Assembly (NCBI GenBank): GCA_023381565.1
Contig: JAMCRR010000197.1
Span: 20,811-84,810 of the forward strand
DNA length: 64,000 bases
Direction: 5' to 3'
Source: Chloroflexota bacterium
GTDB taxonomy: Bacteria; Chloroflexota; Anaerolineae; Anaerolineales; Anaerolineaceae
Shown here: positions 18,101-22,952 of the stretch, piece by piece
How positions within the stretch are numbered: the stretch's first letter is position 1
Layout of the letters: the number at the start of each line of letters is the position of its first letter
Made by a program: the position numbers and the translations under genes
The notes under the pieces: model-generated
What the model was told of the DNA's origin: nothing
Database searches by the model: none
Seen by the model: the letters and a program-made list of their open reading frames with translations, nothing else

Positions 18101-18712
18101 CTAGATTCCTCGGGCTTCTGCAAATGCTTCCCAGGTTTCGCGACCTAACCAAATTAAGAATACCAATGCCGCTATGTTTTCCGCCCAATACCAATGGAAC
18201 AGTGTGTTAAGCAATAGCCCAATTAAAACTGTTCCAGCCATGTAAGCACAAGTGAGAGAGGCTATGGCGTCATCAGCCAGCGCCCCACTCCGTAGTTCAT
18301 TGGCTATTCGTTTTTTCCGAAAAGCCAGGAACGGCATAATGATGACTGCTGCCAGGGAGATGCCAATCCCAAGCGGGGAACTCTCTACCCGGGAATGAGC
18401 TACCAAACCATAGATTGATGATATTGCCACATAGAGACAGAGGAGGAAGAGAACGATAGTTGTTAATACCGAAGCACGTTTTTCAGCTTTTTCTATCCGT
18501 CTTTGGTCAGTATGGTTGGCTTCGACCTGCAAACGCCACAACAAGATCATGCCCGATGACAGCTCAATCACCGAATCGATTCCAAATGCGGCCAGCAACG
18601 CACTATGTGCATTGACTGCTGCTGCTAGAGAAACGGCAGCCTCAATAAGCATATAAAACAGAGTAAACTTTTCGAGCTGGATCCCAGCCCGGACTGTAAC
18701 CAGGTTATCCAT
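18101..18712 (-). CDS. cation diffusion facilitator-like membrane protein
   Basis: This 203-residue polytopic protein has five or six hydrophobic segments and the CDF-like sequence FGIDSVIELSSGMILLWRL, where the Asp would be a metal ligand. A second candidate site is ALADDAIASLTCAYM. It has no cytoplasmic C-terminal dimerisation domain, so it is shorter than classical cation efflux proteins (about 300 residues). A zinc, iron or manganese efflux role is inferred. It appears to be a single gene; the upstream 220 bases to the oxidase gene show no ORF. Confidence 0.7.
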   Translation of the reverse strand: MDNLVTVRAGIQLEKFTLFYMLIEAAVSLAAAVNAHSALLAAFGIDSVIELSSGMILLWRLQVEANHTDQRRIEKAEKRASVLTTIVLFLLCLYVAISSIYGLVAHSRVESSPLGIGISLAAVIIMPFLAFRKKRIANELRSGALADDAIASLTCAYMAGTVLIGLLLNTLFHWYWAENIAALVFLIWLGRETWEAFAEARGI

Positions 18713-18934: not shown

Positions 18935-20407
18935 TCAGGCTAATTCCAGGCTTAAAGATTTCAATGCTTGCTCAGCCGCTTGCTGCCCCTGGTGGATGCA
19001 GTCCGGAATGCCCACGCCATCGTAGGCGCTGCCGCACAGGAACACACCGGGATGGTTCGCAACTCGATTGCGGATCTGCTCGACGCGCTCGAGGTGACCC
19101 ACATCGTACAGAGGATTGGCTTTGTTCCAGCGGTACACCCGGGCAAACAAGGGTTGGGCGTTGATGCCCATCATCTCAGCCAGCTCCCGGCGGGCAACGT
19201 TCACCAGCTCGGGATTTTCCAGCGAAACCAGTTCTTCACGGCCAGGCCCACCGACGAAACAGCGCAGAAGGAGGCCGTCTTGGGGAGCGCGGGAGTCGAA
19301 TTTGATCGAGGACCAGGTGCAGGCCGAAACCTGGCGCTGCTCGCTGCGCGGCGTCACGTAGCCGAAGCCATTCAGGGGGTGTTTCACAGAGTTGCGGGTA
19401 TATGCCAGGGAAATCGTAGCGGTGGAGACGTAGCGAATGGCAGAAAGCATGGAGGAGAGTTCCGCGTCCAGATGGGAAACGAGATCGGCTGATATGTACG
19501 CCGGAACCGCCAGGATGACTGCATCGGCTTCCCAGGTTTCTCCAGTTGTGCTGCCCACACGGAAACCGTTCTGCGTACGCTCGAGCGAGCTCACTTTAAC
19601 CCCGGTGTAAAGGTCGCCTTCCGTTAACGCTTCCTGAAGCACAGCCACCAACTCGCCCAGGCCACTGCGCAGGGAGATGAACATCGAGGCAGGGGTGCCA
19701 TTTGAGCTGCTGGGTGCTGTATTCCCGCTGTGGTTGTGGTTCGACCGTTTTTGTGCCAGCATACCGCGGATCAAGCTGCCATGCTGCTCCTCCAGCGCCC
19801 GAAAACGTGGGAAGGTAGCCAGCAGGCTCTGGCTTTCCGGATCCGAGACGTGGATTCCCGAGAGCAACGGTTCGGCGATCTTATCCAGCGCTTCGCCTCC
19901 CAGGCGTCGTCGAACGAAAGCCCCCACGCTCTCATCATCCTTCTCTTCCCGGCGAGGGATGAAAAAATCGAGGCCCATACGCAGCTTGCCCGGCCAGGAG
20001 ATGAGGGAGGAAGTGATGAACGGCGTAATGCGGGTGGGCACGATCAGCATGACACCGTCCGGCAGGGGGGTAAGGCGCTGCTTCTGCACTACGAAAGTCT
20101 TGCGGCGCTCGTCATTGGTGCCGATCAGCTCCCCACCTAACCCCAGGCTCTGGCACAGCTCTGTCGCCCAAGGTTTCTGGCGAATATAGCAGTCTGGCCC
20201 GCCTTCAATGGTGAACCCGCCCACGTGTTCGGTGAGGATCTTGCCGCCGAAGCGATCGCTGCTTTCCAGCAGGGTAAAACGAGTGGGGATGTTCGCCTTG
20301 CGAGACTGCTCCTGGAGAGCATAGGCTGCAGCCAGCCCGGTAATGCCTCCGCCAACGATGACAACGCGGCGAGGCGAGTGGTCGGTGACTATTGGTGCGG
20401 CATTCAT
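18935..20407 (-). CDS. hemG: protoporphyrinogen/coproporphyrinogen oxidase
   Basis: This FAD-dependent oxidase performs the six-electron oxidation of protoporphyrinogen IX or coproporphyrinogen III. The N-terminal dinucleotide site is VVIVGGGITGLAAAYAL (GxGxxG-type Gly19 to Gly24), followed by SSDRFGGKILTE, EGGPDCYIRQKPWA and ISLRSGLGELV. The C-terminal FAD motif is FLCGSAYDGVGIPDCIHQG. The length of 490 residues is normal for the HemY/CgoX form. Its start overlaps the upstream radical SAM stop by four bases, which indicates translational coupling. Protoporphyrin and coproporphyrin specificity cannot be separated by eye. Confidence 0.92.
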   Translation of the reverse strand: MNAAPIVTDHSPRRVVIVGGGITGLAAAYALQEQSRKANIPTRFTLLESSDRFGGKILTEHVGGFTIEGGPDCYIRQKPWATELCQSLGLGGELIGTNDERRKTFVVQKQRLTPLPDGVMLIVPTRITPFITSSLISWPGKLRMGLDFFIPRREEKDDESVGAFVRRRLGGEALDKIAEPLLSGIHVSDPESQSLLATFPRFRALEEQHGSLIRGMLAQKRSNHNHSGNTAPSSSNGTPASMFISLRSGLGELVAVLQEALTEGDLYTGVKVSSLERTQNGFRVGSTTGETWEADAVILAVPAYISADLVSHLDAELSSMLSAIRYVSTATISLAYTRNSVKHPLNGFGYVTPRSEQRQVSACTWSSIKFDSRAPQDGLLLRCFVGGPGREELVSLENPELVNVARRELAEMMGINAQPLFARVYRWNKANPLYDVGHLERVEQIRNRVANHPGVFLCGSAYDGVGIPDCIHQGQQAAEQALKSLSLELA

Positions 20408-21612
20408 ATCGAAGCAGAGCCCATCCCGGCCAGTTTTTCGACGTCATCCATATAGGGGAATGAGCCTGGCTCGTAAGCGCAGAAAGGCTCTTCAGCAAGC
20501 ACGTCCCCGCTGACGGCATAGGCGCGTGAGCGCGAACCGCCGCATACCCAACGGAACTCGCACAGCCCGCAGCGGCCCTTGAGTTGGTCTTTATCCCGCA
20601 GGGACTGCAGCAAAGGGCTGTTCTGATAGATGTCTTTCAACTCGGTTTCGCGCACGTTGCCGGCTTTGAGGGGCAGGTAGCCGCTGGGGAACACATCGCC
20701 CCGTAAAGAGATGAAGATAAAGCCCTGACCTGAGTTGATGTGCATCGGCGTGCGCCGGACGTGATCTGAGGCAGCCACCAGCGGCAGGCCCCGGGTCTGG
20801 TCCTGTAGTGCGGATTTCAGGCGTGTATAAGTGCCGTTCAACGATAGGACCTGCTCCGGTGGGATTCCCCTGGCCTCCAGGGCAGCCCTTTGCAGGACCA
20901 CGCGCTTATAGTGATGGCCTTCGGTCGTCTTCAAACCGATGTACTTCGAAGCGTCATAGAGGAAATTCATGACGGCTTCGTAATCCTCTGGCGAGATCTC
21001 ATCTTCAGAGACCCCCCGGCCGGTCGGCACCAGGAAGAAGAGGCTCCAGGTCATTGCGCCCATCGTACGTACCAGGGTAAATATATTGGGCAGGTCGAAG
21101 AGGTTGTAGCGGGTGACGGTAGTGTTGATTTGCAGTTTCAACCCGACGGATTGGGCCGCACGCCAGCCGTTGAGCGTCCAATCGTACGAGCCTGGAACCC
21201 GGCGGAAATCATCGTGGATGGCAGCCGTAGAGCCGTCCAGGCTGAGCGAAATCACCTTGGCGCCGCTGTCCTTAAGTCGCTGCAGATTGGTTTGATTGAG
21301 CAGAGGGGTACCCGAAGGGGAGACCGCCGCAGGCATGCTGCGTTGCGAAGCATAACTAACCAGGTCGAAGATATCGGCCCGCTTGAAAGGGTCGCCGCCG
21401 GTGAGAATGAAGAGGGGGTGTGGAGAGCCGAAGCGCTCCACCTGGTCGATGAGCTGGCAGCCCTCTTGAAAAGAGAGCGCCTGGGGATCGTGGAAAGGGC
21501 TGGCTTCTGCCCGGCAGTGCCGGCAGGCCAGGTCGCAGGCCTGGGTGGTTTCCCAGATGATCAGAAATGGGCGTTCGTTAAGATCGTAGGCGGGTTTGCG
21601 AATGAGCTGCAT
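20404..21612 (-). CDS. radical SAM/SPASM domain protein (TIGR04053-like)
   Basis: This radical SAM enzyme has the cluster motif C26-x3-C30-x2-C33 in TTQACDLACRHCRAE, then LILTGGDPFKR-type strands and a C-terminal SPASM domain with Cys residues in GRCGLCEFRWVCGG and EEPFCAYEP. It resembles the TIGR04053 group and, more distantly, AhbD and heme d1-type enzymes that edit tetrapyrroles. Coupling to a porphyrinogen oxidase supports a tetrapyrrole substrate, which is inference. The start at 21612 has AAGGA eight bases upstream; the ATG at 21621 lies too close to it. The alternative is a peptide-modifying SPASM enzyme, but no precursor peptide is seen next to it. Confidence 0.85.
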   Translation of the reverse strand: MQLIRKPAYDLNERPFLIIWETTQACDLACRHCRAEASPFHDPQALSFQEGCQLIDQVERFGSPHPLFILTGGDPFKRADIFDLVSYASQRSMPAAVSPSGTPLLNQTNLQRLKDSGAKVISLSLDGSTAAIHDDFRRVPGSYDWTLNGWRAAQSVGLKLQINTTVTRYNLFDLPNIFTLVRTMGAMTWSLFFLVPTGRGVSEDEISPEDYEAVMNFLYDASKYIGLKTTEGHHYKRVVLQRAALEARGIPPEQVLSLNGTYTRLKSALQDQTRGLPLVAASDHVRRTPMHINSGQGFIFISLRGDVFPSGYLPLKAGNVRETELKDIYQNSPLLQSLRDKDQLKGRCGLCEFRWVCGGSRSRAYAVSGDVLAEEPFCAYEPGSFPYMDDVEKLAGMGSASI

Positions 21613-21644
21613 AGGGGGCATCCTTACGAATAATGGATAAGCAT

Positions 21645-22301
21645 CTAGTCTAATTTGTCGTGGCAGAAACTATCCACCATGGCCACCATCAGGGCGTCCA
21701 TAAAATCGTTGGTGCGCTGGTAGAGCCGTTTTCCGGCGTCGTCTAGATGGCCGTTCAGCGAGCTGGTTTCGAAGATCATATCCATAATCGAGTGCTGGAA
21801 GAAAAGAAAAGCCTGCACGGCATCCGAAACGTTCATCCTGGCCTGGGCGCAAATTGTGCCGTAGTCCTGGGCCAGGTGCTCGGCTTCGCGCAAGAAGACC
21901 TCGCCGGAATCGAGGCGGCTATTGTACTGCATCAAGAGTCCCAGCAGCATCTGGCCGGAGTACTTGAATTTCATGCGCTGGATTTCATCGAGATGGTTGA
22001 TCCAGCCTTCACGCGGCATGCCGTGCTCGACGATGTGGCGCCGCACCAGGTCGTTCGAGTGCTCGACGGGCAAGGCGAGAGACTTTACTTGAGGAGAAGG
22101 GAGACGCGATTGGCTGACGAAGCGCTCCAGATCGGCGAGGGCGAAGCGGCGCCGGCCGCCGGGGGTGCGCATGCAGGAAACCTTACCGGCATCTGCCCAG
22201 CGGCGCAGGGTGGTGAAATGCACGCCCAGATAGCGAGCGGCGGCGGCAAGATCGAGCCAGGTTGTGGAAGGGGTTTCGAAGGTGGTGGTTTTAGTCTCCA
22301 T
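21645..22301 (-). CDS. MerR/excisionase-type HTH regulator with helical sensor domain
   Basis: This 218-residue protein has an N-terminal helix-turn-helix of the MerR/HTH_17 type (WLDLAAAARYLGVHFTTLRR, then WADAGKVSCMRTPGGRRRF; about residues 14-60). The C-terminal helical domain (about 95-215) resembles RsbRD_N-type or globin-like sensors. It lacks the cobalamin-binding motif of CarH. It is the first gene of the operon with the radical SAM and porphyrinogen oxidase genes, 32 bases before the former. Likely operators, the repeated TGATTCTTAG-type boxes, lie just upstream. A heme or porphyrin ligand is conceivable but unproven. Confidence 0.8.
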   Translation of the reverse strand: METKTTTFETPSTTWLDLAAAARYLGVHFTTLRRWADAGKVSCMRTPGGRRRFALADLERFVSQSRLPSPQVKSLALPVEHSNDLVRRHIVEHGMPREGWINHLDEIQRMKFKYSGQMLLGLLMQYNSRLDSGEVFLREAEHLAQDYGTICAQARMNVSDAVQAFLFFQHSIMDMIFETSSLNGHLDDAGKRLYQRTNDFMDALMVAMVDSFCHDKLD

Positions 22302-22311
22302 AGTCCATACC

Positions 22312-22341
22312 TGATTCTTAGTGAATCTATGTAATTCTTAG
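22312..22341 (-). promoter_or_regulatory. candidate operator: two direct repeats 20 bp apart
   Basis: TGATTCTTAG (22312-22321) and TAATTCTTAG (22332-22341) are direct repeats whose starts are 20 bp apart, about two helical turns. A third, TGATTCTCAG, is at 22425-22434. They lie 11-130 bases upstream of the HTH regulator's start and are good candidates for autoregulation. Confidence 0.5.
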
Positions 22342-22478: not shown

Positions 22479-22952
22479 TCACTCCGGGCATTGGAACTCG
22501 ATGAACTGCAGGATGTCGAACAGGTCCTCTGGCCGGGGAATCAGTTTTCCTGGTAAGAGGCGGTCGGCGGAGTAGATCTCGCCGTAGCGGTCGATGGTGT
22601 AGATCGCGGGGTAGAAACCCTGCGGGGTGGGCACGGCAAATAAACGGTCAGCTTTTCCTTCCGGATCGGAGAGGAAAGTGAAAGGCAGAGAAGCCCATGC
22701 GGCGGGTTGATCTTGGTTCAGTGGCAGCACCACGAGCAGGCGCGTATTTTGCTCGCTCAGCTCACGCGCACCCTCTGCCAGACCAGCCAGCAGATCCTCT
22801 ATGCGTGGGTCAGGGGGCTGACCCACAAAGACCAGGATCAGGTTGCTGCGGTTGCGAAAATCGGAAAGGCGCAGGGTTTCGCCGCGTAAACTGGGGAGGG
22901 AGAAATCCGGCGCCATCTCGCCGGGTTCAGGAAGTTGTTTTGTTCCGGGCAT
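22479..22952 (-). CDS. redoxin-fold (AhpC/TSA-like) protein without the peroxidatic cysteine
   Basis: This 157-residue thioredoxin-fold protein begins like a peroxiredoxin (PGEMAPDFSLPSLRGETLRLSDFR and LILVFVG), but where the catalytic TxxC should be there is QPPDPRIEDL, with no Cys. The only Cys is four residues from the C-terminus (QCPE). It should therefore not work as a classical peroxidase. It may be a binding or regulatory protein. It lies upstream of the heme-related operon, separated by the regulator's promoter region, and could be co-regulated with it. Confidence 0.7.
   Translation of the reverse strand: MPGTKQLPEPGEMAPDFSLPSLRGETLRLSDFRNRSNLILVFVGQPPDPRIEDLLAGLAEGARELSEQNTRLLVVLPLNQDQPAAWASLPFTFLSDPEGKADRLFAVPTPQGFYPAIYTIDRYGEIYSADRLLPGKLIPRPEDLFDILQFIEFQCPE

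What the first reader, a model, noticed from the sequence alone, without database searches (positions are those of the whole stretch)
18935..22301. Regulator, radical SAM/SPASM protein and porphyrinogen oxidase in one coupled operon
A TIGR04053-like radical SAM enzyme is translationally coupled to a HemG/CgoX-type oxidase and preceded by an HTH regulator. Radical SAM enzymes of the AhbD kind finish heme by decarboxylating Fe-coproporphyrin. The pairing here suggests a tetrapyrrole-editing step or a non-standard end of heme biosynthesis under its own regulator.
Basis: partly seen in the sequence, partly recalled or inferred. Interest (0 to 1): 0.6.

Follow-up and report, generated by a model that had tools for sequence, protein, structure and literature searches.

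The report
Second, oxygen-free heme-finishing gene cassette
A bacterium of the Chloroflexota type that already has a full set of heme-making genes carries a second small operon, a regulator plus two heme enzymes, whose radical enzyme probably completes heme without oxygen.

Summary
The three genes are real and where stated: HTH regulator, TIGR04053 radical SAM (rSAM) enzyme, and a HemY/CgoX oxidase overlapping the rSAM gene by 4 nt. The same assembly holds a complete coproporphyrin-dependent heme operon on another contig, so no enzyme is missing for the rSAM to replace. Yet TIGR04053 is tied to heme: all 25 of 121 genomes of the order with it also have CgoX, against 12 of 96 without, mostly in one hem operon. 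The closest homologues head complete heme operons. The cysteine motifs and a Glu/Ser/Ser pattern match non-methanogen archaeal AhbD; a Haloferax homologue placed like the genetically tested anaerobic ahbD is in the same family. Genomes keeping ChdC all have a heme-copper oxidase; most of those without do not. RiPP pairing: 0 of 121 over cut-off. Best reading: an oxygen-independent coproheme decarboxylase with its own CgoX, under a BldC-like regulator with a globin-like domain. A 12-nt element shared by both operons suggests common control. Unexplained: 10 of 25 genomes have rSAM and CgoX but no ferrochelatase or ChdC.

The parts
21645..22301 (-). Regulator: BldC/MerR-like helix-turn-helix (about residues 13-66) plus a C-terminal all-helical, globin-like domain (about residues 78-217)
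   Evidence: HTH_17 42.6 bits; AlphaFold2 model and second-look structure alignment; same family heads heme operons in L084, L097, L108, L110, L119, L120, L124
20404..21621 (-). TIGR04053 radical SAM/SPASM-type enzyme, proposed oxygen-independent coproheme decarboxylase (works like AhbD)
   Evidence: (CX3CX2C at C29/C33/C36; CX2CX5CX20C at C351/C354/C360/C381; E234, S313, S363)
18935..20407 (-). Second HemY/CgoX-type coproporphyrinogen oxidase of this genome, overlapping the rSAM gene by 4 nt
   Evidence: TIGR00562 329 bits, cut-off 98; other copy at C204; groups with the CgoX of L119/L120
22362..22390 (-). Sigma-70-like promoter match upstream of the regulator (TTGACA, 17 nt, TAAACT); 1 found against 1.1 expected, so weak
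22315..22326 (-). 12-nt element ATTCACTAAGAA, identical to one upstream of the regulator of the C204 heme operon; a second CTAAGAAT lies 20 nt away (22334-22341)

Best explanation
The operon is an accessory finishing cassette of the coproporphyrin-dependent heme pathway. CgoX oxidises coproporphyrinogen III to coproporphyrin III. The ferrochelatase of the other heme operon (C204) inserts iron. The TIGR04053 enzyme then removes the two ring A/B propionate carboxyls of coproheme by 5'-deoxyadenosyl radical chemistry, giving heme b without O2 or H2O2, in parallel to the peroxide-dependent ChdC of the main operon. A BldC-like regulator with a globin-like sensor domain controls the cassette, probably through an element shared with the main operon, so that cells can keep making heme when oxygen is low. 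Shown here: gene content, order, families, cysteine pattern, co-occurrence, a complete pathway elsewhere in the assembly, the shared 12-nt element. Inferred: substrate, product, oxygen independence, the signal sensed, and that the two contigs belong to one organism.
For: Co-occurrence: 25 of 25 TIGR04053 genomes have CgoX over cut-off, against 12 of 96 others (Fisher p 4e-17). Position: in the hem operon beside hemB, chdC, hemE, cpfC or cgoX in most stretches read; closest homologues L119 and L120 (about 68-69% identity) are HTH-rSAM-ChdC-CpfC-CgoX-HemA; rSAM and CgoX trees both group the window with L119 and L120. Sequence: AuxII motif and the Glu/Ser/Ser replacements reported for non-methanogen archaeal AhbD. 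Genetics elsewhere: deletion of H. volcanii ahbD loses anaerobic growth, restored by heme (only partly under denitrification), while ChdC/PitA serves aerobic growth (PMC5746218, abstract and section 11); a H. larsenii homologue with similar neighbours scores 502 on TIGR04053 and 343 on TIGR04545. Ecology: 12 of 12 TIGR04053 genomes with ChdC have COX1, 4 of 13 without ChdC do (p 0.0005). Named loci: ScdA/RIC near in 38 of 80, Crp/Fnr-type regulator in 38, YwiC in 23, CgoX in 14. CgoX works anaerobically in S. aureus (PMC6620371).
Against: No activity is shown for any bacterial TIGR04053 protein in what I read. The NCBIfam AhbD cut-off is not met. The cassette lacks its own ferrochelatase. In 10 of 25 TIGR04053 genomes no PF00762 ferrochelatase was found, so the substrate there may not be coproheme made in the usual way. 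21 of 80 named loci have neither a hem nor a Crp/ScdA/YwiC neighbour. The ChdC/COX1 counts are not corrected for relatedness (7 of the 15 ChdC-less genomes of the wider set of 27 are in family f13). The assembly is listed with 4.7% contamination, and the 12 other genomes of its family in the sample lack ChdC, and ferrochelatase and CgoX over cut-off, so the two contigs could be from two organisms.
Confidence: 0.72

Rival explanations
1. The rSAM acts before iron insertion, as a HemN-like decarboxylase of coproporphyrin(ogen), and the coupled oxidase then makes protoporphyrin IX (a protoporphyrin-type branch).
For: The pair is rSAM-oxidase with no ferrochelatase between them, here and in ten of the 80 named loci; 10 of 25 TIGR04053 genomes lack PF00762; no HemN over cut-off in 27 of 27 genomes searched.
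Against: Closest homologues sit in operons with ChdC and CpfC; the sequence is nearest AhbD-type proteins. AhbD forms a radical on metal-free coproporphyrin, but there it was trapped, and iron is thought to take the electron (PMC11306076, passages).
Confidence: 0.1
2. The rSAM edits a tetrapyrrole other than heme b (for instance a heme d1-like or other modified heme), as NirJ does.
For: NirJ-type models score 166-219 bits; in Thermus plasmids the gene lies beside nirS or a gene annotated nitrite reductase.
Against: NirJ-type cut-offs of 500-650 bits are far off; a Thermus plasmid neighbourhood without nirS keeps the gene; no AhbA/B/NirD-type gene over cut-off in 121 genomes.
Confidence: 0.08
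3. The rSAM is a maturase of CGCGG-type peptides (TIGR03995), a RiPP system.
For: TIGR03995-type genes lie near it in Halarchaeum and Halorussus, and a CGCGG stretch is fused to an ScdA-like protein beside it in L156.
Against: TIGR03995 is over cut-off in 0 of 121 genomes of the order, though 25 of 121 have TIGR04053. The one weak hit, in G000, overlaps an unrelated 302-aa ORF.
Confidence: 0.04
4. The two heme operons come from two organisms mixed in one bin, and in the window's own organism the cassette is the only heme-finishing module.
For: Contamination 4.72%; the 12 family members sampled lack ChdC, and ferrochelatase and CgoX over cut-off.
Against: Tetranucleotide correlation between pieces of the two contigs 0.70-0.79, within one contig 0.63-0.77, similar GC; a 12-nt element shared upstream of both regulators. 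Two foreign stretches (L088, L095) also reach 0.73-0.76, so composition alone does not decide.
Confidence: 0.1

Closest known systems
AhbD of non-methanogen archaea (H. volcanii HVO_2144, A. pernix Q9YBE2)
   Same: CX3CX2C plus CX2CX5CX20-38C; Glu and two Ser where full-SPASM AhbD has AuxI cysteines; in H. volcanii it works beside a ChdC used in air; a H. larsenii homologue is in the same NCBIfam family
   Different: Those archaea are assigned a siroheme route; here AhbA/B is absent and the gene sits with CgoX of the coproporphyrin route, behind its own regulator
AhbD of methanogens and sulfate reducers (TIGR04545)
   Same: Fold class, radical SAM motif, AuxII motif
   Different: AuxI cysteines absent; TIGR04545 cut-off not met. 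L108 (G116) is nearer to that type: 468 bits, cysteines present
ChdC/HemQ
   Same: Proposed same step, coproheme to heme b
   Different: No structural similarity to AhbD (PMC10965808), peroxide-dependent; also present in this genome on C204
CgoX/HemY
   Same: TIGR00562 passed; second copy in the genome
   Different: Overlaps the rSAM gene instead of lying in the main hem operon
CgoN (YtpQ) of Bacillaceae
   Same: Also an oxygen-independent counterpart in the same pathway
   Different: Acts one step earlier in the role of CgoX and has no homology to other protein classes (PMC10965808)

Membership tests
TIGR04053 radical SAM/SPASM family (NCBIfam) | Score above the curated cut-off of 395 bits over the full model | tested here: met
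   484.4 bits, profile 2-366 of 366
AhbD heme synthase | Radical SAM motif CX3CX2C | tested here: met
   C29, C33, C36, invariant in 21 sequences
AhbD heme synthase | C-terminal CX2CX5CX20-38C (AuxII) | tested here: met
   C351, C354, C360, C381; motif from PMC10452713
AhbD heme synthase | Either full SPASM cysteines or Glu/Ser/Ser in their place | tested here: met
   E234, S313, S363 in the window protein at the columns where L108 has Cys; equivalence to M. barkeri numbering is my reading of the motifs, M. barkeri was not aligned
AhbD heme synthase | TIGR04545 equivalog cut-off (500 bits) | tested here: not met
   334.9 bits; the H. larsenii homologue also fails (342.8). So filed under TIGR04053, with AhbD as what it works like
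AhbD heme synthase | Converts Fe-coproporphyrin III to heme b | not testable with these tools
   needs an anaerobic enzyme assay
Siroheme-dependent heme pathway | AhbA/AhbB siroheme decarboxylase present | tested here: not met
   PF17805: none in G000, 0 of 121 over cut-off
Coproporphyrin-dependent pathway | HemE, CgoX, ferrochelatase and ChdC in the same genome | tested here: met
   all on contig C204 of the assembly
CgoX/HemY | TIGR00562 cut-off | tested here: met
   329.4 against 97.85 bits; copro- versus protoporphyrinogen preference not tested
BldC family regulators | NF033787 cut-off (77 bits) | tested here: not met
   41.9 bits; only the HTH part resembles BldC
Globin-like sensor domains (RsbR N-terminal, pXO1-118 type) | Fold match over the C-terminal domain | tested here: inconclusive
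   3pmc Z 12.8 over 123 residues, 3pmd Z 11.4, 2bnl Z 8.9; helical models can reach such Z by chance, and the model has mean pLDDT 76; no His conserved over the C-terminal domain
RiPP maturase (TIGR03995 partner) | Cognate precursor gene in the genome | tested here: not met
   0 of 121 genomes over cut-off, G000 included

The most novel reading that the evidence does not exclude
In part of this order, heme is made by an ending that no described route covers: CgoX plus a TIGR04053 radical enzyme, with both ChdC and the PF00762 and CbiK ferrochelatase families missing (and CbiX in nine of ten genomes), in organisms that keep cytochrome bd but mostly lack heme-copper oxidases. Either an unknown chelatase serves it or the radical enzyme works on a different substrate. 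The window's cassette would be the accessory form of that ending, added to an organism that already has the aerobic one, under a globin-like sensor.
Probability: 0.25. Interest if true: 0.75.

Novelty: new variant of a known kind. Interest (0 to 1): 0.5.

Why it matters
[quoted passage not shown] TIGR04053 has no functional name in NCBIfam. Linking it to haloarchaeal AhbD, to hem operons and to ScdA/Crp-type neighbourhoods gives a testable candidate in Chloroflexota, Bacillales, Thermus and Actinobacteria. It is not wholly new: reviews already state that AhbD finishes the coproporphyrin route in some organisms and that ahbD lies with hemY/hemH/hemQ (PMC10548856; PMC7242693).

Tried and rejected
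A missing late heme enzyme in this genome: rejected, all are on C204. Siroheme route: AhbA/B not found. RiPP pairing: rejected for the order. HemN-type coproporphyrinogen dehydrogenase: none over cut-off in 27 of 27 genomes. Class II chelatases as the missing ferrochelatase: CbiX in 16 of 121 genomes but only G018 among the ten TIGR04053 genomes without PF00762 and ChdC; CbiK 0 of 27. DUF4491 membrane-protein pairs lie before cgoX in several of these operons but were not found in the stretches of G039, G080 or G026. Papers holding TIGR04053 or TIGR03995: none; AhbD with Bacillus and SPASM: none; the CGCGG search gave nothing to the point in its listing. Foldseek alone gave no match below E 0.001 for the regulator. 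The PDB sequence search listed no AhbD by name; best was PqqE.
Full report
WHAT IS THERE. The window (G000:C160:20811-84810) holds three genes on the minus strand: an HTH regulator (21645-22301), a radical SAM protein (20404-21621) and a HemY/CgoX-type oxidase (18935-20407). The last two overlap by 4 nt. NCBIfam scores: rSAM 484 bits on TIGR04053 (cut-off 395), 335 on AhbD (500), 166-219 on the NirJ-type models (500-650); oxidase 329 on TIGR00562 (98). Upstream lies an AhpC/TSA-like gene (22479-22952), downstream a cation-efflux-like gene (18101-18712).

THE GENOME HAS THE REST. On contig C204 the same assembly has HTH-HemA-HemC-HemD-HemB-ChdC-HemE-ferrochelatase-CgoX-HemL in one direction (HemA, C, D, B, E and ChdC confirmed by Pfam, HemL as a class-III aminotransferase). 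So the pathway is complete without the window. The 12 other genomes of the same family in the sample have no ChdC, and no ferrochelatase or CgoX over cut-off, and the assembly is listed with 4.72% contamination. Tetranucleotide profiles do not separate C160 from C204 (0.70-0.79 between 16-kb pieces of the two contigs, 0.63-0.77 within one contig), but two foreign stretches (L088, L095) correlate nearly as well, so this is support, not proof.

WHERE THE FAMILY LIVES. In 121 genomes of the order, TIGR04053 is over cut-off in 25. All 25 have CgoX over cut-off, against 12 of the other 96. Adding two sub-cut-off cases (G116, which is closer to AhbD proper; G021, a fragment) gives 27 of 27 against 10 of 94. 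I clustered 37 stretches (36 fetched, one from the window). The rSAM gene lies in a hem operon in most, typically after hemB and before chdC or hemE. In G058 it lies away from the heme operon (L102). In five stretches (L095, L098, L100, L115, L117) my greedy ORF picker took an antisense ORF where one search places the rSAM.

NAMED RELATIVES. A scan of GTDB genomes returned 80 loci, a capped list. The two nearest, Chloroflexi GWB2_54_36 (L119) and HGW-Chloroflexi-3 (L120), 68-69% identical, read HTH-rSAM-ChdC-CpfC-CgoX-HemA, the second going on to HemC, D, B and E. The window cassette is thus this operon's head and CgoX without ChdC, ferrochelatase and the early genes. Both the rSAM tree (3 rows, support 100/99) and the CgoX tree (FastTree, midpoint-rooted) join the window to these two. 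The rSAM tree used 69 of 102 collected sequences; I dropped 33 rows from L139 upwards, mostly Bacillales, to save time. The C204 CgoX groups elsewhere (with G031, G017, G018).

Among the 80 loci, 17 have any hem gene within the fetched flanks and 14 have CgoX. Ten of these show CgoX next to the rSAM with no other hem gene: L150 (Anaerolineales), L151 (Arthrobacter) and eight Bacillales. Crp/Fnr-type regulators are near in 38 of 80, ScdA/RIC in 38, YwiC in 23, MoeA in 26, MobB in 21 (these cluster names rest on scans of one or two members each). 21 of 80 have neither hem nor Crp/ScdA/YwiC neighbours. That ywiC lies by narK-fnr in B. subtilis is recalled, not looked up. No control set of random loci was available for these counts.

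ARCHAEA AND THERMUS. In plasmid records (247 with a match, best 40 listed), a Haloferax larsenii copy lies by a halocyanin gene and a gene annotated cbb3-type oxidase subunit I, and a Halorussus copy by nirK, halocyanin and a hemG-annotated oxidase. In H. volcanii, ahbD (HVO_2144) lies by nirK, norB and blue copper genes, and its deletion slows only anaerobic growth; protoheme restored DMSO-respiring growth, and denitrifying growth only partly and with DMSO added (PMC5746218, abstract and section 11). I did not hold the HVO_2144 sequence; that it is TIGR04053 is inferred from H. larsenii (502 bits). Thermus copies lie beside nirS or an annotated nitrite reductase, or a multicopper oxidase, with oxidase-subunit-I, Rrf2 and DUF542 genes. 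A Deinococcus ficus copy lies by CbiX/CobA and nitrite/sulfite reductase genes, without hem genes.

SEQUENCE LOGIC. PMC10452713 (parts 1-3 of 6 read) reports that all 39 AhbDs compared have CX3CX2C and CX2CX5CX20-38C, and that non-methanogen archaeal ones (one exception) replace three AuxI cysteines by one Glu and two Ser. The window protein has both motifs and E234, S313, S363 at the columns where the AhbD-like L108 has Cys. The large operonic subclade of the order has Ala and Gln at two of these sites instead, which does not fit that pattern. AlphaFold2 gives pLDDT 85, and Foldseek finds PqqE, BlsE and SuiB first, which does not tell the substrate.

OXYGEN. ChdC is described as peroxide-dependent. 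Of the 25 TIGR04053 genomes, all 12 with ChdC have a heme-copper oxidase; of 13 without, 4 do (p 0.0005). With the two extra genomes it is 4 of 15 (p 0.0002). One of the 12 ChdC matches (G019) is weak, 52 bits. Ten of 25 lack both ChdC and PF00762 ferrochelatase; 9 of these 10 have cytochrome bd and 1 has COX1. This fits an oxygen-independent replacement of ChdC, but the counts are not corrected for kinship and some genomes are incomplete. CgoX is no obstacle: in S. aureus it works with and without oxygen, as do several Firmicutes CgoX, though that of S. coelicolor failed anaerobically (PMC6620371, abstract, sections 6 and 8).

REGULATOR. The model (9 sequences, pLDDT 76) has a BldC-like HTH and a helical C-terminal domain whose best matches are pXO2-61 (Z 12.8), pXO1-118 (11.4), globin-coupled sensors (about 9) and RsbR (8.9). 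No histidine is conserved over that domain in the 9 sequences, so a heme-free globin-like sensor is more likely than a heme sensor. The family heads a heme operon or an rSAM-CgoX unit in 8 loci: window, L084, L097, L108, L110, L119, L120, L124. Its C-terminal domain matches in 55 of 121 genomes, more than have TIGR04053 or CgoX, so it is not heme-specific. Upstream of both regulator genes of this genome lies ATTCACTAAGAA, found in no other of 219 fetched loci except copies of the window. Chance sharing of 12 nt or more: 2 of 2000 random pairs, 4 of 2000 shuffled pairs. It was noticed by eye first, so these figures flatter it. It is not conserved in L119 or L120.

RIPP CHECK. TIGR03995 is over cut-off in 0 of 121 genomes; the weak G000 hit overlaps an unrelated 302-aa ORF. 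Of eight plasmid neighbourhoods read, four are haloarchaeal and two of these hold a gene annotated CGCGG family RiPP.

KNOWN OR NEW. Reviews already say that AhbD finishes the coproporphyrin route in some organisms and that ahbD lies with hemY/hemH/hemQ (PMC10548856 passages; PMC7242693 passages; the 2015 primary paper is not held). What I did not find in print (searches; listings, and the papers named here) is the assignment of TIGR04053 to this role, the split cassette, its regulator, or operons lacking the ferrochelatases searched. The library is open-licence only, so absence there proves little.

Noticed in passing
L092, L105, L089, L106, L094, L096, L099, L101 (G062, G098, G085, G041, G039, G034, G012, G080): Heme operons with rSAM and CgoX but no ChdC and no PF00762 ferrochelatase found in the genome; CbiX found only in G018 of the ten such genomes and CbiK in none of 27. 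How iron is inserted is unexplained.
   Followed up: partly
L091:7910-8377 and L091:8425-8757, and similar in L089, L090, L092, L099, L100, L104, L105, L106: A pair of small DUF4491 membrane proteins inside heme operons, mostly between hemE or rSAM and cpfC or cgoX (in L099 a single longer ORF ahead of hemA); function unknown.
   Followed up: partly
L156:3754-4791: A CGCGG-type stretch, labelled a putative RiPP family elsewhere, is fused to an ScdA/RIC-like protein near TIGR04053, which makes a RiPP role for that motif doubtful.
   Followed up: no
L108:5002-9251 (G116): HTH, an AhbD-like enzyme with SPASM cysteines (TIGR04545 468 bits, below its cut-off), ferrochelatase and CgoX in one operon: another rSAM type in the same slot under the same regulator family.
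   Followed up: partly
window 22479-22952: AhpC/TSA-like peroxiredoxin gene directly upstream in the same direction, 177 nt from the regulator; whether it belongs to the unit is open.
   Followed up: no
L100:17372-17992 and 55 of 121 genomes: Regulators with the same globin-like C-terminal domain are common in the order, also without TIGR04053 or CgoX; their signals are unknown.
   Followed up: no
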